NCBI RefSeq assembly: GCF_003014475.1
Contig: NZ_PYGJ01000021.1
Span: 1 to 64,000 of the forward strand
Source of the DNA: Shimia abyssi
GTDB taxonomy: Bacteria > Pseudomonadota > Alphaproteobacteria > Rhodobacterales > Rhodobacteraceae
Reading direction: 5' to 3'
DNA: 64,000 nucleotides
Of this stretch, positions 12,231 to 24,986 are shown piece after piece. Made by a program: the position numbers and the translations under genes. Position 1 is the first letter of the stretch. Each line of letters begins with the position of its first letter. The notes below the pieces were generated by a model that made no database searches, was not told the DNA's origin, and saw only the letters and a program-made list of their open reading frames with translations.

Positions 12231-12432
12231 GAATTGGCCTTAGAAAACAGTGATTAGGCGTATTTTGTCGCCATTATGGAATTAGTGGTTAGGTTTCCAT
12301 TGGTATTGTTTCTCTCACTTATCAGTGATGCCGGGGTTATGTTAAAATTCTTGAATATTTTGACGTTTTGGCTGACGATTAAAGACGGCAAACGGAATAA
12401 TTGCAGCCAATTTTTTATTCGGGGGAGCAGGA

Positions 12433-14790
12433 ATGATTTGTCCTGCCGCAAAGAGACGACGGACACGTACGGCTCTGGTTTTTGTGCTGGTGGCGTTACC
12501 TGTTTTGTTCGCAAGCGGACGCGAGCCTGTAAGTGCGGAGGTGGACCCATTCTCTGCGCCCTATGAATTGGTGCGTTATGGCGGCGATGAAACGCTGCGC
12601 GATTTTGTGGCGAAACACCTGAATGATCCTGACCTGTGGCCCACCGTATTGAAGATCAACAAAATGGCGTCTCCGGCGGATCTGGAACCCGGAGCGGTAT
12701 TGGAGATGCCAGTTCAGCAGGTGGCCTTGGCGGACGACGCATTGATGACGTCGCTTGCGGCGATTCAAAGGGCGACAGCAGAAGGGGCGCGCCTGTTTGC
12801 TCCTGACGAAATTGGCAGCGCGATCAATGATCGGGATGCCGCCGTTGAGCGGCGCGGTGATGGTGAATGGCGCGAAGTTGTGGCCTTTGCCGGGTCTGCA
12901 ACGGTTCATGCAACTGAGGCGTTTGAGATTGCCGTTGCACAGCGGGACAAGGCCGCGGAAGCGCTGATCACTGATATTCATGGTGATGTTGAGGGGCGCG
13001 ACCCCACAGAGGCAGCATGGTCTGATCGGGACTTGAACGACATTCTTGTTGAGTTTGAGCGGCTGCGCACCCTGTCCAATTCGACCACACAGGTGACGTT
13101 TCGTGATCTGAGCCGATTGCGGCTGAACCCCAATTCCAACGCGACGATCCAGCGAATGCGATCAGACCCGTTGACCGGCAAGGAGGTTACCAAGGTCAGT
13201 TTGGCCGAGGGTGATTTTTATGCGCTTTTGAACCAGCTGTCGGATCGCGACAGCTTTGAGATTGATGTGCCGGGGATCAAGACAACGACGGATTCAGATG
13301 ATTTCTGGATCAAGAATGACGCCGATAGTGCCTTGTTTGTGAACTATGACACGGCTGCTCTGGATATTGATTCTGCGGGGGCGGCGGTGTCGCTTGGTCA
13401 GGACGAAGGCGTCGTGATTGGGCGGGACGGGACCACCTCGCGAGCGGAGGTGCTGGAGCGCACATTGCTGTCCAGCCCAGACAATCGCGCGGATGTTTAC
13501 GGCAATGCGGTTGAGCTGGCATGGCAGGCCTATCCTGACGCGGCGGGGTATTGGTTTGAGGTTGCGGGGGATCCGGGGTTCAATCGAATGATCGCATCTG
13601 AATGGGGTGTGAAAGAAACCGGGTTCCGTGTCGCCGCGCTTGAACCCGGTGTGCATTTCTGGCGCGTCGCGGCGTTGGACCAATTGGGACTGCCCGGAAA
13701 ATGGAGCGAGGTGCGCGAGTTTGAATTGCGCATCGATAATACGCCGCCGTTTCTGACGCTTTTTGCGCCTGGTGAAGGCGAATTGTTCGAGGCGGACCGC
13801 GTAGAATTGCTGGGCGCATCTGAGAGCGGCGTTACGCTGACATTGAATGGTCAGGCGGTCGAGGTGGCGGAAGACGGCAGTTTTCTGTTGGCAGCGGCGC
13901 TGATTGAGGGGAACAACCAACTGGTGATTGTTGCGACGGATGCGGCAGGCAACCGGTCGGAAAAGCGCCGGCAGGTGGTGTATGTACCCAAAACGTCGGT
14001 GGAGATCATAGTTGATCCGAACCTGCCACGCAGTGGCGACGTTCTGGTCAGCCGAACCGGCGAGATGACGTTGCTCGGAACAAGTTCGGCGCAGGCTGGA
14101 TTAGAGATGTTATTGCGTGACGGAGCAGGGGCCGAAATTGGGCGCACACGGATTGGCGGCGGCGGCGCATTTGGCATCACGGTGCCGGTGAGCGAGGTGG
14201 TCGCAGGGTTTTCGCTGGAGGTGCTGAGCCAGGGCGGTAGTGGGCTGGGTTCGGTGGCGTTTCAGGTGCAGCGCGACAGCGTAGCGCCCGAGATCGTGCT
14301 GGATGTACCGCCACCACGCGCAACATCCGAGGATGTGCTGGACCTGACCGGAGAGATTGGTGACGCGGTGGCGGCAACGCTGAGCGGGGAAGAGTTGGAG
14401 ATTTTTGACGGGTTTTTTGCTACGCAAGTGACCCTTGAGCCGGGAACCAACGTGTTTGAGTTCCAGGCCGAGGACGCGGCAGGCAATGCGAGTGTGTTGG
14501 TTGTTGAGACGGTTTTGGACCTTGAGCCACCCGAAATTCTGGACGCTCAGATGACGCGCCCGAATGGGAAGGGTGGTGCGATCGAGATCGTGGTGCAGGC
14601 GCAGGATGCGTCGGGGCTGCGGCAGGCTGCTCCATATCTGGTCGAGGTCGGGGACGAGGAATTTGAAGGATACCTGCGCTGTGACAGCGCCAATGGTGTG
14701 TGCCGGGCCAATGTGCCTGCGACGCCGGGCGAGATGAACCTCATTGAGGTGATCGTGCAGGACTATGCAGGGAACGAGGCAATCCGGTGA
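12433..14790 (+). CDS. LysM/FecR/Ig-like envelope protein
   Basis: A 785-residue exported protein. A signal peptide follows a basic start ([20 protein letters not shown]). A LysM-like segment at about residues 35-90 ([17 protein letters not shown], then [10 protein letters not shown]) suggests glycan contact. Residues about 215-335 match FecR-domain proteins ([15 protein letters not shown], then [20 protein letters not shown]). Next comes a fibronectin-like unit ([20 protein letters not shown]), and the rest is a series of Ig-like units of the glucodextranase-B type ([31 protein letters not shown]). GGGGAGCAGGA precedes the ATG. The last four bases overlap the next gene, so the trio 12433-21415 is one operon. 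No TM segment other than the signal is seen, so it is probably periplasmic or surface attached. Confidence 0.75.
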
Positions 14791-17700
14791 TGGCAATGAA
14801 AGAACTGAAACGCTGCGTTTCGCGGCTGGGGATTTGCGCGGCCATGGTTTTGGGGGGCGCACTGGGTGCGTCTGGACAAGACTTGGCCCCACCGCCCGAT
14901 CATGGTTTGCTGGTGGTCTATGGTGTTCTTGCGCCGACGCGCGAAGGCGACATCGACCACAAGGAGACGATTTACTTCAGCGTTCCCAAGGATTTGCGGG
15001 ATCGGTTTTACGTTCGTGTGTTCGATCCGGAAATGAGTGGTGAACATGACTTCCGCTATGGCGGGGCAGGTAATACACAAACGATTTACCGCGTGAGCGG
15101 GGGCGAGGGCGCTTATTCTGACATGGCGATGCCTGAGCCTGTGGCCAATGGATCGCGGCCACAAAAGCTACGCCGGGCCGAGCTTATGGCGGAGATGCCG
15201 GGCAAGGTGCTGCGCGAAGAGACATTTGGCAGTGATGCGGCGACAGATGGTGAGTGGGTATCGATTGGTTCGGTACGGGCACGCCAAGGCGAAGTGATCG
15301 GGGATCGGGCATGGTTCCGGTTGGATGTGCTGGGCGCGGATGGGGACGATGGCAACGGGTTCAACGTGGATGTGAGCCTTGCCCGAGATGTGCATCGCCG
15401 CCCCGAAGGGTTGCAGATGGTGGCCTATCAGCCGACCATTCGCTGGCCCGGTGGCACTATTGGCACAAGGGTTGAATTCCAGAACCCCGGTGGTGGACCG
15501 ATCGTCGTTCAGAACTTTGACGGCGCTGCGGCGGATTTGCGGTTGAACCGGATGTATTCGGATATTGCGCTGCGGGCGTCGGGACAGGATACATGGGCCA
15601 GCGAAGAGGCGCGCCCGGAAGAAGAGCTGCTGGCGATCACGCTGAAAGGTGGATTTGAAACGCCCAACGACATCACGCTGCGGATTTTTGATCAAGCGGG
15701 CAAGGTGCTGCCGATCATGATGCCACCGCGTCAGGCCCCGGAACCAGAGCGGCCGCAGGCGCTGCCAAGGGCCAGAGAGTTGGCGGATTGTACGTCAGTG
15801 GCGTTTGACGGCACGTATGAGGGGGCCGATCCGCTGTTGGGCTATCGCTGGGATTATGGCGACGGGTCGTCGTCGCAAGAGCCGGTGATTGTTTACAGCT
15901 ATCTCAGCCCCGGTCGTTACGACGCGCGGTTGAGGGTGCTGGAGCCCGGTACGCGCGCGGCGCGCGGTTGGGAAAACACGGTCCCGGTACATGTCCGATC
16001 GGCACCGCGTGCAGTGGCGGGCAATCCGATAACCGTGGCACCGGGGGATGTGGTGCCGTTTGATGCCAGCGCCAGCCAGCCAAGCGACAGCCCTATCACC
16101 AGCTATCTCTGGACCTTTGGTGATGGCGCAGTGTCCAATCTGGCCCAAACCGACAAGATGTATGCTGAGCCCGGTGCCTATCGGGTTGTGTTGCGGGTCA
16201 TGGACGGCAGCAATCATCCCTGTAATTTCGGCGTTGCGACGAGGTTGGTGAATGTGAATTTCCCACCGGTGGCCGAGGCAGGCACGGATCTGAGCTCGAT
16301 TGTTGGGCGCCCGGTGTCGCTGGACGGATCAGCCAGCTATGACGTGGATGGCACGGTTGTTGATCATGACTGGGATATGGGGGACGGCACCGAGATTGAC
16401 GGTGCACGGGTCACGCATATCTACACCGAGCCAGGGGTTTACCGCGTGGCTTTGGCAGTGACGGATGATAGCGGCGTGTCGAACGAGACAACGCGCGATT
16501 ATCTGACGATCAAGGTGAACGCGCCGCCCGTGCCCTTAATCGAAGGCCCAACCGAGCCAATTGCGGTCGGCGAAGCTGTGCTGATGGATGGGCGCAAGTC
16601 CAGCGATGCGGATGGCGTGATCCTGAGCCATCTGTGGGACTTTGGTGATGGGGCGATTGGTGAAGGTGAAGCGGCGGAATATGCTTGGGCGCGGCCCGGA
16701 GTATACGAGGTCACGCTGACGGTGATTGATAATTCGGGCACCGCCTCGGCCACACAGAGCGCGCGGTTTGAGGTGATTGTGAACACACGCCCAATTGCGG
16801 ATGCCGGTGCGGATCAGTTTGTAACCGCGTCGGATGTGCAGTTTGACGGCGGTGCATCGCGCGATATTGACGGCAAGATTTCTCAGTATCTTTGGGAATT
16901 TGGCGATGGCCGAACCGGCATGGGGCCGCGCCCGGTGCATTCTTATTTGCGCCCAGGTATGTACGAAGTTGCGCTGACTGTTACCGACGATAGTGGTGCC
17001 CCCCAAAGCAGCCATCGCGATACAATGACAGTTACGGTGAATGCGTCGCCCATCGCGGATGCGGGGCCTGCGCTAACAGTGGCTCCGGGTGAGGAATTTG
17101 TGCTCGACGCAGGTGCGTCGGTTGATCCGGATGGGCGGATTGCTGGGTTTGAGTGGCGGTTCAACGATGGTGCCACGAAACCGGGGGAGCGTGTCAGCCA
17201 TGTGTTGGAGCAACCTGGATTGCACCGCATCCTGCTGAAAGTCACAGATGATTTTTCCGGGGGCGGGGCGAGTGATGAGTCCGAGGTGTTGATCACTGTG
17301 AATGCGCAACCTATCGCTGAAGCGGGGCCAGATGTGCGCATTGCGCCGGATGAAACCGTGCGATTTGATGCGCGTGGATCGTTTGATCGGGATGGCAAGC
17401 TGGCCGAATATCGCTGGGAGTTTGATGACCTTCAGACGCCTCTGGAGGCCGCAATGATCGAGCGTGCCTGGCCAACGGCGGGCATTTTCAATGCGCGACT
17501 TGTGGTGCGGGACGATAGCGGCGTGGCCAACTCGACCGCGACGGACACCGTGACAATCCGTGTGAACCATCGCCCCGAGGCCGAGGCCGGCCCTGTGGTT
17601 GATACAGATCGCCTGCTGGTCCAGTTGGACGCGGGTGGGTCAAGCGATGCGGATGGCGACAACCTTGTTTACATGTGGGATTTTGGCGATGGTTCGCAGC

Positions 17701-19676
17701 CGGTCTATGGCCGCGAAGTGGCGCATGTGTTCCCACGTGCCGGACGTTTTCCTGTGACATTGCGGGTTGATGACGGCTCGGGTTTAAGTAATGCGCGGGA
17801 CGTGGATGCGACAACAGTGATCATCAATGCGCCGCCTGTAGCGGATGCTGGTGGCAACCGGAATGTGTGTTCAGGGCAATCCATCTTGTTTGACGCGAGC
17901 GGATCGAGCGACGAGGACGGTGATTTACTGCGATACGCGTGGGATTTTGGTGACGATTCAGGGTCTGAGATCGTGAATCCGACCAAAACTTATGAGATGC
18001 CTGGAACCTATCCGGTCACGTTGAGCGTGGCGGATGAGAGCGGTTCCAAGCGTGGCACGGACATGGACCGCATAGCGGTGATCGTTCAAGAAGGGCCGAT
18101 TGCCAATGCAGGACCGGATATGAGGGTTTGCGTTAATCAAGAGGTACGTATGGATGGTACAGCGTCCACGGACGCGGATGGTTCGGTAAATGCGTTTGAG
18201 TGGACCTTTGGCGATGGCAGTCGGGCAAGTGGCGCAACGCCGGTCAAAGCGTTTGACCGTGCCGGCACCTATGCGGTCACGCTGACAATCACAGGCGATA
18301 CAGTGGGGCAATGCAGCCCTCTGGACACGGATGTTGTGAATGTCGAGGTGTTGCCTGCGCGAAGCCAGTCCATTGAGGCTGTGGAGCGGGCGCCTGCGGG
18401 GGGGGCGGTGTCGTTCGCCGCGGTGTTGGGTGATGAGCCGAACACAGGCGAGCCGATTGCCTATGACTGGGTTTTCTCGGATGGCGGTACGGCGCAAGGG
18501 CTGGAGGTAGAGTATGTGTTTGCCGAGCCGGGCGTGTATTTAGCGACACTGACGACGACAATGGAGGGCGGATTGCAAGATTGCGGGGCGCTTGAAACCA
18601 TACACAAAATCATTGTTAATGATCCGCCAGAACCCAGGATCGACGGACCAGAGACGCTGGCCGTAGGTGAATTGGTGAGCTTTGATGCCACGGGATCGAC
18701 TGATCGGGACGGGGTTATCACCAGTTTCGTATGGGACTTTGGCGATGGCACCACAGGTCAAGGTGTGGCGGGTGATCATCGTTACGAGCAGGCGGGCACG
18801 TATAAGCTGCAACTGGCGGTTCAGGATGATGCGGGCGTGGATAATTCGATAGTTGTGCTGGAGCGCGAAGTGGTGGTGAACCCGGTTCCGATTGCCGGGT
18901 TGGAAACACCACCCGCCTTATGTGCCGGTATCCCGGAGTATTGGGCCGTTGCGACCGAAGAGGGCGTAAAGGTGGATTGGGCATTTGGCGATGGCCAATC
19001 CGGTACGGGTGCTGCGCTGGAACATGTGTTCGCTAAACCGGGATTGTATCCCGTATCTGTGACAACGGATGACGGGCGCGGGCTGGCCAATTCGGTTTAC
19101 CGTGAAGAGGTCTATGCGCGGGTGAATGCGATCCCTGAAGCTGATGCAGGGGCTGACCAGGTGGTGTGCCCGGGCGCTCCGATATCGTTCAGTGCAGGGG
19201 CACATGACGCGGATGGTGCGATCACACAGTATATCTGGCGGTTTTCAGATGGGGTGACGCTGGAAGGCGCGGATGTGACCCGATCGTTTGAGGAAACGGG
19301 CCCGCTGGAGGTTGAGCTGAGCGTTGTCGACGACAGCGGGTCGATGTGCGACACTGGCGTTGATACGGCGCAAATTCTGGTGAATGCAGCGCCGATTGTG
19401 GATGCCGGACCAGATCAGCAAACACCAGTCGGCGCGGCACATGACGTGGTGCGTTTTGATGCCAGCGGGGCGACGGATCCAGATGGGCAAGGTGTGCTGA
19501 TCAATTGGGATTTCGGCGATCAGACTAACGTTGCGGGCGCGGTTTCACGACATAGATTTGCCAGTGCTGGTACTTACACGGTGACTGTCACGGCAAGCGA
19601 CAGCACCGGGCTGGCTTGCGGTGTATCGACTGATACGGTGCGCATTGAAGCCTTTGAACGCGAGATCGGCAATTGA
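14787..19676 (+). CDS. Giant PKD-repeat surface protein
   Basis: A 1629-residue exported protein. An N-terminal signal ([12 protein letters not shown]) is followed by a unique domain of about 300 residues ([15 protein letters not shown] onward) that I do not recognise. Then come roughly 15 PKD repeats of about 85 residues from about residue 335 to the end. Each carries a variant of the YxWDFGDG motif (for example [51 protein letters not shown]), an AGxxYxVTLxVxDDSG strand and a [10 protein letters not shown]-type linker. Several repeats, mainly in the second half, have a Cys before strand B (NVCSG, RVCVN, ALCAG, VVCPG), and several have another in a late loop. There is no C-terminal anchor or sorting signal. 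It overlaps its neighbours by four bases on both sides. PKD repeats usually mediate protein or polysaccharide contact outside the membrane. Confidence 0.85.
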
Positions 19677-21415
19677 TGCGGTTCCCACTACCGCTCAAGT
19701 TCTTTGTTTTTGCAGCGCTGGTGGCGGTGGCGCCACTTGCTCTTGTTGGGCAGAACTTAGTCAAAATCACACGTGATGAGCTGAAGAGCGCGGCGAACGA
19801 GGATCTGACCGGTGTCGCGGCACAGGTGCGGGGTGAATTTGACAACCTGTATCAAGGACGCTGGCTTGCGCCGTTGATGGTGATCCGATCCGGTGTGGAC
19901 AACCCTGATCTCGACGTCGCGCAAAAGGTATCGCTGCTGACGCTGGGCATGGAGCAGATGGAAAGCGTTGTGGCTTTGCAGCTGAGCCTTGAGGGTTCCG
20001 ACATTCCGGTGATGGTGTCGGATCAGAGTTTTGTGGATAAGCTTTCAGCAGCTGGGTTGGAGGCGACGGCGCTGTTGTCGACATCGGGTGATTTGATCGC
20101 GAATATCGAGGGCACCGGACAATTTGGACGTCCTTTGATCAGTCAGGTGCCAGAGACCGGGGATTGGTTGGCTACCTTGGCCTTGCCGATGGAAACGCGG
20201 CTGGCGGGGCGAAAACTGACGCTGGTCGCGCGGATCGATCTTGGATCGCTCCGACGCACGGTTGAACAGCATCCTTTTAATCAAAGAGGCGAGATTACGA
20301 TTGTGGATCATGCAGGGCGGCGCGCGCTTGTCGATGCTCCAGAGGTGCTTGCCGACCGCGCCATTGTTGCGTCTGCAATGCCGCTGATCGTGGCCGGCGC
20401 ACGGGCGGATGCTTTGGAAAACTATGTGCGGCGCGATGGCACCGTGATGCTGGGCGCGTATGCGTTTCCGGATTGGTTCCCGTGGGCGGTGATAACTGAA
20501 CTGAGCGAGGACAAGGCCTATGCGGTGATCAATCAGATGATGGAGCGTATCCTGCTGGTTGGCGCGCTGGGATTTGCGGCCGCATCGGCGGCGGCGCTGG
20601 TTTTTTCGCGCGGCCTCACAGGGCCAATCCTCCAGATTGGTCGGGTGGCGGATGCCATAGGCGAAGGCGATTTCTCTGCGCGGGTGCAGAAGGTCAAAAC
20701 ACGTGACGAGATTGGGGATCTGGCCAAGCGGGTGAACACGATGGCCAGCCAATTGGGCGAGCGGCTGGAGCTGATGAAGTTTGTCAGCAATGAAACCATG
20801 ACAGCCATCCAGTCGCGTGAAGGCGAAGGGATCTCGCGCGGCGGAGAACGGCGCGATGTGACCATGCTGTTCTCAGATATTCGCGGCTATACGGCGTTTT
20901 CGGAAACCGTCACGCCAGAAGAAGTGATTGAGGTTCTGAACCGTTATTTTGAATTTCAGGCCGAGATTGTTGAACGCCACGGCGGGGATATCGACAAGTT
21001 TGTCGGCGACGAATTGATGGCGATGTTCGTGGGCGACGACAAAGAGGATCGCGCCGTGCGCTGCGGTGTGGAAATCCGTGACGCGCTGGCGCAGCACTTT
21101 GGTGGCCATGACGGGCAACGAGAGCTGGCGGTTGGAATTGGCATCGCCTCAGGGGGCGTTGTGCTGGGCGCTATGGGCGCGCGACAGCGGATGGATTATA
21201 CGGTTCTGGGATCTACGGTGAATCTGGCCGCGCGCCTTTGCAGCAAGGCAGGGCCATGGCAGGTTTTGGTTGATCGCTCTACGTCCGACCTGGTGGATCT
21301 GGATTTGCGTGTCGAACCGCAAGAGGCCGTGGAACTAAAGGGCTACGCCGATCCGGTGCCGGTGTTCCTCGCTGATTTTGAGCCTGAGGAAGAGGTGCCG
21401 GTCATACATCCCTGA
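19673..21415 (+). CDS. Membrane-bound class III adenylate/guanylate cyclase with HAMP
   Basis: A 580-residue sensor cyclase. One TM segment at residues 1-22 and a second at about 288-312 enclose a periplasmic sensor domain of about 260 residues; a HAMP domain follows ([20 protein letters not shown]). The cyclase domain from about residue 395 has both metal aspartates ([10 protein letters not shown] and [12 protein letters not shown]), the purine-selecting Lys in DKFVGD, and [16 protein letters not shown] with the Thr and catalytic Arg. The Lys/Thr pair is the pattern of class IIIb adenylate cyclases, so cAMP is the likely product. It is the last gene of the operon with the LysM/FecR and PKD proteins. 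The periplasmic domain could read the state of those proteins, which is inference. Confidence 0.88.
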
Positions 21416-24047: not shown

Positions 24048-24986
24048 ATGCCACGCATAGTTTTTCACCTTCCGCCACATCTTTTGCAGCGTGTTCCGCG
24101 TGCTGCAAAAGGGTTTTATGGCGAATTGCATCACGCGCTGCACGAGGCGGGCGGGCATGTTGAGTTTCGTGAGCGCGCCTTTTTGCGCGCTCACGTTGCG
24201 TTTGAGGATGACGCATTCCATTTTGTCCATCAGGGGTTGGTGGACATGCCGAATGTTCTGAACACGGGCCCCAGTTACTTGCGCGATTTCTGGTATGCCG
24301 ACCCGAAGGGTGTGTTTGGCGAGAGCTCGATGCGCAGCAAGATGTTTGATCCTTCCTCTGTGCGAAAAGAGCGGGCCGCCAAGTATTTCAGCTGGCTGCG
24401 CGAACGTATTTTGAACAAGCGACTTTCAAAGCACCGGCAGCCCGACGAAAAAGTGGCGTTTGACGGTGGTCATGTTGCGGTCTTCTTGCAAGGTGAGTCG
24501 CTGCCGGTTTTGCGGGCAGGGTTTGTCAGCGAAGTTGAAATGGTTGCTGGTGTGATTGATGCTACTCCCGACCGCCCTATCCTGATCAAGCGCCATCCAC
24601 GCAATGAGGCGCAGGAAAGCTGGTCTGATATTCAGGCAATGGCGGCAGATCATGAGCGGGTGATGCTGGTGGATGCAAATGTGCACGACATTTTGGAGGG
24701 CGCTGCGCTGAGCTGCTCGATCAGCTCAAGCGTATCGGTTGAAGGCATGTTGCACAGAGTGCCTGCATTGGTTTTTGGGCGCACGGATTTTCATCATTGC
24801 GCTGTGACTGTTGAGACGCCTTTGGAGACAGGGCGGGCTGTGGCAAGTGCATTGCAGACAGATTGGCCGTTTGAGGCATTTTTGTTTTGGTTTTTTCGTC
24901 AGAATGGGCTGGACCTGAGGTCAAAGGTGTGGCGACGGACATTGAGTGAGCGCATGGGGCAGTTTTCACCGTCGGGATTTGGATAG
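24048..24986 (+). CDS. Capsule polysaccharide synthesis-type protein (KpsS/KpsC-like)
   Basis: A 312-residue cytosolic protein resembling the KpsS/KpsC (capsule synthesis) glycosyltransferases. The C-terminal half has the family pattern ILIKRHPRNE, then MLVDANVHDILEGAALSCS, then SISSSVSVEGMLHRVPALVFG, which forms the nucleotide-sugar site in these enzymes. The N-terminal half holds NVLNTGPSYLRDFWYADPKG. No other capsule genes lie close by, so it is isolated between rpoH and an oxidoreductase. It may add a Kdo-like or other sugar to a lipid or surface glycan; the acceptor is not evident. Confidence 0.68.
   Translation: MPRIVFHLPPHLLQRVPRAAKGFYGELHHALHEAGGHVEFRERAFLRAHVAFEDDAFHFVHQGLVDMPNVLNTGPSYLRDFWYADPKGVFGESSMRSKMFDPSSVRKERAAKYFSWLRERILNKRLSKHRQPDEKVAFDGGHVAVFLQGESLPVLRAGFVSEVEMVAGVIDATPDRPILIKRHPRNEAQESWSDIQAMAADHERVMLVDANVHDILEGAALSCSISSSVSVEGMLHRVPALVFGRTDFHHCAVTVETPLETGRAVASALQTDWPFEAFLFWFFRQNGLDLRSKVWRRTLSERMGQFSPSGFG

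What the first reader, a model, noticed from the sequence alone, without database searches (positions are those of the whole stretch)
12433..21415. LysM/FecR - PKD giant - class III cyclase operon as a possible envelope-to-cAMP sensor
Three exported or membrane proteins are encoded with four-base overlaps at both junctions: a LysM/FecR/Ig-like protein, a 1629-residue protein with about 15 PKD repeats, and a HAMP-linked nucleotide cyclase with all catalytic residues. Seen directly: the overlaps, the domain order and the cyclase motifs. Known: PKD and LysM domains bind proteins or glycans, FecR domains pass signals across the envelope, and class IIIb cyclases with Lys/Thr make cAMP. Inferred: the two large proteins present a stimulus (glycan, surface contact) to the periplasmic domain of the cyclase. 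I know of no described pathway with this trio.
Basis: partly seen in the sequence, partly recalled or inferred. Interest (0 to 1): 0.78.

Follow-up and report, generated by a model that had tools for sequence, protein, structure and literature searches.

The report
Three-gene envelope-linked cAMP cyclase unit
Certain marine bacteria carry a set of three genes that stay together and look like an antenna in the cell envelope, including a giant protein of fixed length, wired to an enzyme that probably makes the signal molecule cyclic AMP; looser relatives of the idea are known.

Summary
The trio is real and is a genuine unit. In 292 genomes of the order, the 12 with a full match to the diagnostic part of any one gene have all three, adjacent and in the same order; elsewhere only weak matches and remnants were seen. 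A scan of about 85,000 species genomes gave 41 loci (overlapping the 12), all with the set, one cut by a contig end and one with a broken PKD frame. Plasmids of two Skermanella species, another order, carry it at 35-46% identity. Four of 14 fetched trio-less genomes show the clean empty site; one relative shows a scar.

Corrections: the cyclase start is most likely ATG, so the overlap is one base; LysM support is weak; the cyclase's periplasmic part is a dCache domain. New: the PKD giant keeps 1580-1594 residues in 42 copies, with 15 repeats.

Reading: an exported co-receptor or scaffold gating a dCache-HAMP adenylate cyclase. The unit is shown; signal flow is inferred. FecR proteins near CHASE2 cyclases and kinases are in print, so this is a new variant of a known kind.

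The parts
12350..12355 (+). CTTG block, possible -35 element of the operon promoter
   Evidence: the CTTG is identical in 11 of 11 aligned upstream regions (window and 10 of the loci L096-L106); promoter role inferred
12433..14790 (+). gene 1: exported FecR / Ig-like protein, 785 aa, N-terminal hydrophobic stretch (residues 11-29)
   Evidence: relatives 49-76% identical at 41 of 41 loci; the only PF04773 match found in this genome
12565..12711 (+). LysM-like stretch of gene 1 (weak, placed by eye)
   Evidence: no Pfam match in the window protein; 4 of 40 copies match at E<=0.1, best 0.00097
13060..13329 (+). FecR domain
   Evidence: PF04773 E 5.8e-8; 40 of 40 aligned copies match
13747..13980 (+). 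Ig-like (Glucodextran_B) domain, best-scoring of two stretches
   Evidence: PF09136 E 8.5e-21
14787..19676 (+). gene 2: exported PKD giant (1629 aa from GTG 14787; ATG at 14790 is an alternative start)
   Evidence: hydrophobic stretch at residues 10-28; length from the conserved LLVVYG motif (residue 41) to the end 1580-1594 aa in 42 copies, SD 3.0
14886..15776 (+). N-terminal part of gene 2, modelled as two beta-sandwich domains, no assigned family
   Evidence: no Pfam family in the window copy, one chance-level match in 1 of 41 copies; no NCBIfam match; model pLDDT 87.5, pTM 0.87; no Foldseek match at E<=0.001
15780..19620 (+). 15 PKD repeats (approximate outer limits), motif centres 82-90 residues apart
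   Evidence: PF18911 15 stretches; 15 motif centres
19673..21415 (+). gene 3: TM-dCache-TM-HAMP-class III cyclase (580 aa from TTG 19673; ATG 19676 is the likely start)
19757..20545 (+). periplasmic dCache domain between TM1 (residues 8-26) and TM2 (293-311)
   Evidence: PF02743 in 35 of 41 copies at E<=0.1, best 3e-8, window copy 13.5 bits against cut-off 45; model pLDDT 87.6; 109 PDB matches at E<=0.001; VIA Z 17.7 to an integrative model, 16.8 to the best crystal structure
20603..20755 (+). HAMP domain
   Evidence: PF00672 E 1.4e-12
20852..21349 (+). class III cyclase catalytic domain, adenylate type (K442/T510)
   Evidence: PF00211 E 1.1e-22; nearest PDB chains are bacterial adenylate cyclases; residues conserved in 41 copies

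Best explanation
The three genes encode one envelope receptor for cAMP signalling. Proteins 1 (FecR/Ig) and 2 (N-terminal domains plus 15 PKD repeats) are exported and form an extracytoplasmic scaffold or co-receptor of fixed geometry. Through the N-terminal part of the PKD giant and/or the FecR protein it acts on the dCache domain of protein 3; the change passes through TM2 and HAMP to the class III catalytic dimer, which makes cAMP that is read by Crp-type or other cyclic-nucleotide-binding proteins of the cell. Shown: an all-or-none, ordered three-gene unit; hydrophobic export-type N-termini; TM-dCache-TM-HAMP-cyclase architecture; adenylate-type catalytic residues; fixed PKD length. Inferred: physical contact of the three proteins, the direction exported proteins -> cyclase, the stimulus (surface, glycan or solute), cAMP output and its readers.
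For: Three separate searches of 292 genomes found full matches in the same 12 genomes; adjacent and in order in the 11 of these that are not the window's own. In 41 named loci FecR and PKD genes were found in 41 and the cyclase in 40, the missing one beyond a contig end; one PKD frame is broken. Each of three tblastn queries hit the same 2 of 72,556 plasmids, where the trio stands in a row. It sits in at least three contexts: before the pseudouridine synthase and sigma-factor genes in the window and 10 of 12 loci L096-L107, between an AsnC regulator and DUF3307 in 12 of 41 loci, and on the Skermanella plasmids. In 4 of 14 fetched trio-less genomes (L141, L143, L145, L149) AsnC and DUF3307 lie side by side. 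Decay is joint: G196 keeps only the end of PKD and two bits of the cyclase at the Shimia site. PKD length constant to SD 3 aa in 42 copies. dCache fold. Precedent for an outer-membrane protein needed by inner-membrane receptor cyclases: NsrA with CyaK and CyaD1/D2 (PMC7529298, abstract and passages).
Against: No direct evidence of contact or of cAMP. dCache domains often bind small ligands directly (established knowledge; titles). In S. meliloti the FecR gene near cyaD1 was not required for perception of the tested signal (PMC5498481). Tree-distance correlation within the trio (0.875-0.956) is no better than with a flanking gene (0.892-0.939) on the same 23 loci, so it adds nothing. The spacing at junction 2 is loose in 17 of 39 loci (over 20 nt).
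Confidence: 0.5

Rival explanations
1. The dCache domain senses a small solute directly; FecR and PKD proteins are co-expressed surface outputs (adhesin, matrix or wall proteins) deployed with the cyclase but not needed to activate it.
For: The dCache model matches solute-binding chemoreceptor domains. In S. meliloti smc02177 (FecR), near cyaD1, is a Clr target and not needed for perception of the tested signal (PMC5498481).
Against: Outputs of a cAMP pathway are usually free to lie elsewhere (inference); here no full match to one member is found alone in 292 genomes and all three are missing or decayed together.
Confidence: 0.25
2. The cyclase monitors assembly or integrity of a structure built by the two exported proteins: the PKD giant is a fixed-length tether or ruler and the cyclase reports tension, contact or breakage.
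For: 1580-1594 residues kept in 42 copies, down to 46% identity between window and Skermanella; 13 of 15 repeats resemble their positional counterpart in Skermanella more than any other repeat of the same protein, 10 of 15 more than any other Skermanella repeat.
Against: No measured length, location or force response; 5 of 15 repeats do not beat the best non-matching Skermanella repeat. Fixed length could also reflect a stable fold of the whole chain.
Confidence: 0.15
3. The linkage has no functional meaning: the trio is kept together by shared mobility or recent common ancestry.
For: Plasmid-borne copies in Skermanella; restricted distribution.
Against: Identity falls to 37-46% between window and Skermanella while order is kept; catalytic residues stay invariant in 41 copies. 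Different genomic contexts.
Confidence: 0.05

Closest known systems
S. meliloti NsrA with CyaK / CyaD1-D2 receptor adenylate cyclases, PMC7529298 (CHASE2 named in PMC13001267, passages)
   Same: An outer-membrane-associated protein is required for inner-membrane receptor adenylate cyclases to answer an external signal; cAMP output
   Different: NsrA is a beta-barrel and the cyclases carry CHASE2; here no protein of the unit matches a barrel family over its cut-off, the sensor is dCache, and the partners are FecR/Ig and PKD proteins
S. meliloti smc02177 (FecR) and smc02178 near cyaD1 and clr, PMC5498481
   Same: FecR-domain, predicted non-cytoplasmic protein encoded near a receptor adenylate cyclase
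   Different: Not required for perception of the tested plant signal; CHASE2 cyclase; no PKD giant in the passages read
Campylobacterota CHASE2 adenylate cyclase cluster, PMC9239204
   Same: Receptor cyclase clustered with a FecR-domain outer membrane protein
   Different: CHASE2 sensor, with phosphodiesterase and TPR protein; no PKD protein in the one passage read
Burkholderia BiofilmReg operon (LysM-FecR protein, CHASE2 histidine kinase, response regulator), PMC5192318
   Same: LysM/FecR exported protein in an operon with a membrane sensor
   Different: Output is a histidine kinase and response regulator; CHASE2; no PKD protein in the passages read
dCache receptors (PctA, TlpA, Mlp24 and others)
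   Same: Fold of the periplasmic domain
   Different: Output domain is a cyclase; a profile of this domain finds no solved chain at E<=0.1 by sequence

Membership tests
class III adenylate cyclase | Guanylate_cyc (PF00211) domain over the curated cut-off | tested here: met
   80.9 bits against cut-off 21.9
class III adenylate cyclase | two metal Asp, adenine-selecting Lys and Thr/Asp, transition-state Asn and Arg | tested here: met
   D402, D446, K442, T510, R521 in 41 of 41, N517 in 40 of 41; roles recalled
class III adenylate cyclase | makes cAMP from ATP | not testable with these tools
   no assay
dCache receptor | two PAS-like modules with a long N-terminal helix, between two TM helices | tested here: met
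   model pLDDT 87.6 with helix 5-74; Foldseek 109 matches at E<=0.001, the 50 listed being chemoreceptor, sensor-protein or biosensor domains; VIA Z 16.8, rmsd 3.6, 236 aligned to the TlpA crystal structure, and Z 17.7 to an integrative McpB model
dCache receptor | PF02743 match over its cut-off | tested here: inconclusive
   35 of 41 copies match at E<=0.1, best 3e-8; window copy 13.5 bits against cut-off 45
FecR + CHASE2 receptor module | FecR-domain exported partner | tested here: met
   PF04773 in 40 of 40 aligned copies
FecR + CHASE2 receptor module | CHASE2 sensor domain in the membrane partner | tested here: not met
   sensor is dCache; PF05226 finds only one sub-cut-off match in the genome, on another contig
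NsrA-CyaK type pathway | outer-membrane beta-barrel receptor in the unit | tested here: inconclusive
   no barrel family in Pfam for the three proteins (E up to 1); protein 1 has a short sub-cut-off NCBIfam match (22.8 bits, cut-off 40) to OmpL47-type barrel in its Ig-like part; a barrel encoded elsewhere is not excluded
FecIRA iron signalling | FecR with adjacent ECF sigma factor and FecA receptor | tested here: not met
   in the window the neighbours scanned are a ring hydroxylase-like protein, a pseudouridine synthase and a sigma factor with Sigma70 regions 1.2/2/4; the whole genome was not scanned for FecA
LysM peptidoglycan-binding protein | LysM domain | tested here: inconclusive
   no match in the window copy; 4 of 40 copies at E<=0.1, best 0.00097

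The most novel reading that the evidence does not exclude
A bacterial envelope sensor in which a rod of exactly 15 PKD domains, held by a FecR/Ig protein, is a fixed-length tether that gates a dCache-HAMP adenylate cyclase, so that contact, spacing or tension at the cell surface is turned into cAMP.
Probability: 0.13. Interest if true: 0.85.

Novelty: new variant of a known kind. Interest (0 to 1): 0.6.

Why it matters
What CHASE2-, dCache- and FecR-linked receptor cyclases sense, and how exported partners talk to them, is largely open. Here is a compact three-gene set that stays together in marine bacteria, several of them named strains with culture-collection numbers in their titles, with related genomes that lack it cleanly. 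Whether exported partners gate a receptor cyclase can be tested with three clean deletions and a cAMP reporter. The constant length of the PKD giant is a second, directly testable oddity.

Tried and rejected
Dedicated cAMP effector next door: in 23 of the 30 loci L107-L136 (23 of all 41) a ~1000-residue protein with ABC_membrane and a C-terminal cyclic-nucleotide-binding domain lies downstream. It was tempting as the effector, but a DUF3307 gene on the opposite strand lies between, it stays in place when the trio is absent, and close homologues (E=0) occur in 66 of 280 trio-less genomes as well as in 12 of 12 trio genomes (handles copied by hand; Fisher p 7e-8, not corrected for kinship). Kept as a lead only.

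Co-phylogeny as evidence: rejected, the flanking gene correlates as well.

Wider relatives: profile search of 385 class genomes with the PKD N-terminal domain gave only G000 and G001; profile search of 299 phylum genomes with the sensor gave the same two plus one weak partial match (G868); the samples overlap in part. The genome-contig scan used two short peptide patterns, so 41 is a lower bound; it did not return Skermanella.

Weak single-gene matches in the order: PKD-NTD G287 (E 7.7e-4; no relative of the trio over 80 bits in its 20 kb); sensor G185 (E 1.3e-4), G196 and G258 (remnants); FecR-part matches G008, G014, G141, G142. Pfam scans with ORF positions show the G014 protein to be heparinase-like, the G142 one exonuclease VII, and the G141 one a different FecR protein beside a TPR/SlipAM barrel-type gene. 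G008 and G185 were not resolved.

Empty site: of 14 trio-less genomes fetched around the ABC gene (L140-L153), 4 show AsnC next to DUF3307; G258 (L140) has a remnant; in the other 9 at least one of the two flanking genes was not found, so they say nothing.

PKD N-terminal domain: Foldseek best E 1.8e-3 with TM about 0.2; VIA-align Z up to 8.0 to unrelated beta-sandwiches; no assignment made. Sequence profile against PDB: best E 0.06, not meaningful.

Papers (held library only): FecR + LysM + adenylate cyclase, none; 'PKD domain' + adenylate cyclase + periplasmic, one unrelated; FecR domain + CHASE2 + cyclase, two; FecR-containing + PKD-containing, none; dCache + adenylate cyclase + class III, none; two of PKD domain, Roseobacter, cyclase: 100 papers, 15 listed, one of these with all three, whose passages are unrelated gene lists; Roseobacter + adenylate cyclase + cAMP, three, listing only. 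Garnerone 2018 (NsrA) is not held; known only as cited.
Full report
What is there. Three same-strand ORFs lie at 12433-14790, 14787-19676 and 19673-21415. Protein 1 (785 aa) has a hydrophobic N-terminal stretch, a FecR domain and Ig-like domains. Protein 2 (1629 aa) has a hydrophobic N-terminal stretch, about 300 residues without any Pfam family, then 15 PKD domains. Protein 3 (580 aa) has TM1, a periplasmic domain, TM2, HAMP and a class III cyclase domain (two weaker hydrophobic windows inside the dCache and catalytic domains were not taken as TM). Across relatives the cyclase starts at an ATG (MRFPL) in 37 of 39 loci, which gives a one-base TGATG overlap here. 8 of 39 loci overlap at this junction, 14 have 0-20 nt and 17 more, up to 156 nt. 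LysM is weak: absent in the window copy, 4 of 40 copies at E<=0.1.

The cyclase. Nearest solved chains are bacterial adenylate cyclases. The metal Asp pair, the Lys and Thr of the adenine pocket, the Arg and the phosphate Lys are invariant in 41 of 41 copies; the Asn is present in 40 of 41 (roles recalled). The periplasmic domain is dCache: 35 of 41 copies match PF02743 at E<=0.1 with best 3e-8, though the window copy is far below the cut-off. The AlphaFold2 model has mean pLDDT 87.6; Foldseek gives 109 PDB matches at E<=0.001, the 50 listed being chemoreceptor, sensor-protein or biosensor domains; VIA-align gives Z 16.8 (rmsd 3.6, 236 aligned) to the TlpA crystal structure and 17.7 to an integrative model of McpB. 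A sequence profile finds no solved chain at E<=0.1, so the ligand class cannot be read off. The host genome holds 18 cyclase-domain places, but only one FecR match, that of protein 1, and no CHASE2 over the cut-off.

Is it a unit? Three searches of 292 genomes of the order, each with a part specific to one protein, found full matches in the same 12 genomes. Remaining matches were weak or remnants: PKD-NTD 1 (G287); sensor 3 (G196 remnant, G258 remnant, G185); FecR part 4 (G008, G014, G141, G142; two of them shown to be other protein families and one a different FecR protein). The 11 other genomes have all three genes in the same order on one strand. A scan of the GTDB species genomes with the PKD N-terminal alignment gave 41 loci, by title all Rhodobacteraceae or genera of the roseobacter group (placement of the genera recalled). 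FecR and PKD were found in 41 of 41 and the cyclase in 40 of 41; L122 ends inside the PKD gene, and L101, a MAG, has a broken PKD frame. Outside the order, each of three tblastn searches of 72,556 plasmids hit only Skermanella mucosa pSM-3 and S. rosea pSR-3, where annotation shows FecR-PKD-cyclase in a row; the S. mucosa copy again has 15 PKD stretches. Its identities to the window are 37, 46 and 45% for proteins 1-3.

All-or-none gain and loss. In 12 of 41 loci the trio lies between an AsnC-type regulator and an opposite-strand DUF3307 gene. In 4 of 14 fetched trio-less genomes (L141, L143, L145, L149) these two flanks lie side by side with nothing of the trio between; the others lacked one of the flanks, or in G258 hold a remnant. 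In the window and 10 of the 12 loci L096-L107 the trio lies before a pseudouridine synthase and a sigma factor gene; at that very place the same-genus genome G196 keeps only PKD residues 1534-1627 and two pieces of the cyclase. G258 keeps a 48-residue piece of the sensor beside DUF3307. The three genes thus sit in at least three contexts, and are missing together.

The fixed-length giant. From the conserved LLVVYG motif (residue 41) to the end, protein 2 measures 1580-1594 residues in 42 copies (window, 39 of the 41 loci with L101 and L122 dropped, and both Skermanella copies), mean 1586.7, SD 3.0, although one repeat is about 87 residues. 13 of 15 repeats are closer to their positional counterpart in Skermanella than to any other repeat of the same protein; 10 of 15 beat every non-matching Skermanella repeat. 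The length leaves no room for gain or loss of a repeat among the copies seen, which is unexpected for a tandem-repeat surface protein (general knowledge, no control was run) and suggests that length or register matters. The N-terminal part is modelled with confidence as two beta-sandwich domains (pLDDT 87.5, pTM 0.87) without a convincing fold match.

How it most likely works. Shown: an obligate unit with two proteins that carry export-type N-termini and a dCache-HAMP adenylate-type cyclase. Inferred: the exported pair forms a co-receptor or scaffold that meets the dCache domain and gates cAMP synthesis. The genome offers nine places with cyclic-nucleotide-binding domains as possible readers. 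Rivals: direct sensing of a solute by dCache with the two proteins as outputs; or the cyclase as integrity, tension or spacing monitor of the structure built by the two proteins. In favour: the outer-membrane protein NsrA is needed for CyaK and CyaD1/D2 signalling (PMC7529298, abstract and passages).

Known kinds. FecR-domain proteins with membrane sensors are in print: a LysM-FecR protein with a CHASE2 histidine kinase in Burkholderiales (PMC5192318, abstract, outline and passages), and a FecR outer-membrane protein with CHASE2 adenylate cyclases in Campylobacterota (PMC9239204, one passage). The present unit shares the FecR partner but not CHASE2, and adds the PKD giant. I therefore file it as a new variant of the kind 'FecR-associated receptor cyclase', not as a member of any named system. 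Searches of the held papers found no description of the trio; subscription papers are mostly not held.

A negative control and a set-aside lead. Distance-matrix correlations within the trio are high (0.94-0.97 on 42 copies), but on the 23 loci with a flanking gene they are no higher than those with the flank, so they are not used as evidence. The flanking ABC_membrane plus cyclic-nucleotide-binding protein, downstream in 23 of 41 loci, persists without the trio and is kept only as a lead.

Noticed in passing
L030:15222-18158 (and 23 of the loci L107-L136; own genome G000:C2:380-3340): A ~1000-residue ABC-transporter-like protein with a C-terminal cyclic-nucleotide-binding domain, in what look like two paralogue groups, is found in 78 of 292 genomes of the order with E=0 (counted by hand) and flanks the trio in 23 of 41 loci; a possible cAMP-responsive exporter.
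   Followed up: partly
L167:5503-9801 (genome G141): A different FecR protein (937 aa) lies beside a TPR plus SlipAM/outer-membrane-barrel-type protein, reminiscent of the Campylobacterota FecR-TPR clusters.
   Followed up: no
window 12350-12355: A CTTG block about 80 nt before the first gene is identical in 11 of 11 aligned upstream regions, where little else is; perhaps the -35 element of a single operon promoter.
   Followed up: no
L154, L155 (Skermanella plasmids): In Skermanella the trio follows a TAXI-TRAP transporter gene set on a ~300 kb plasmid, and in S. mucosa another cyclase-domain protein lies about 2 kb downstream.
   Followed up: no
G000 (whole genome): 18 class III cyclase-domain places against nine cyclic-nucleotide-binding-domain places in one genome.
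   Followed up: no
window 24048-24986: A Capsule_synth-like gene a few genes downstream of the trio has counterparts of only about 30% identity in 5 of 13 loci compared, while the genes on both sides are about 70-94% identical.
   Followed up: no
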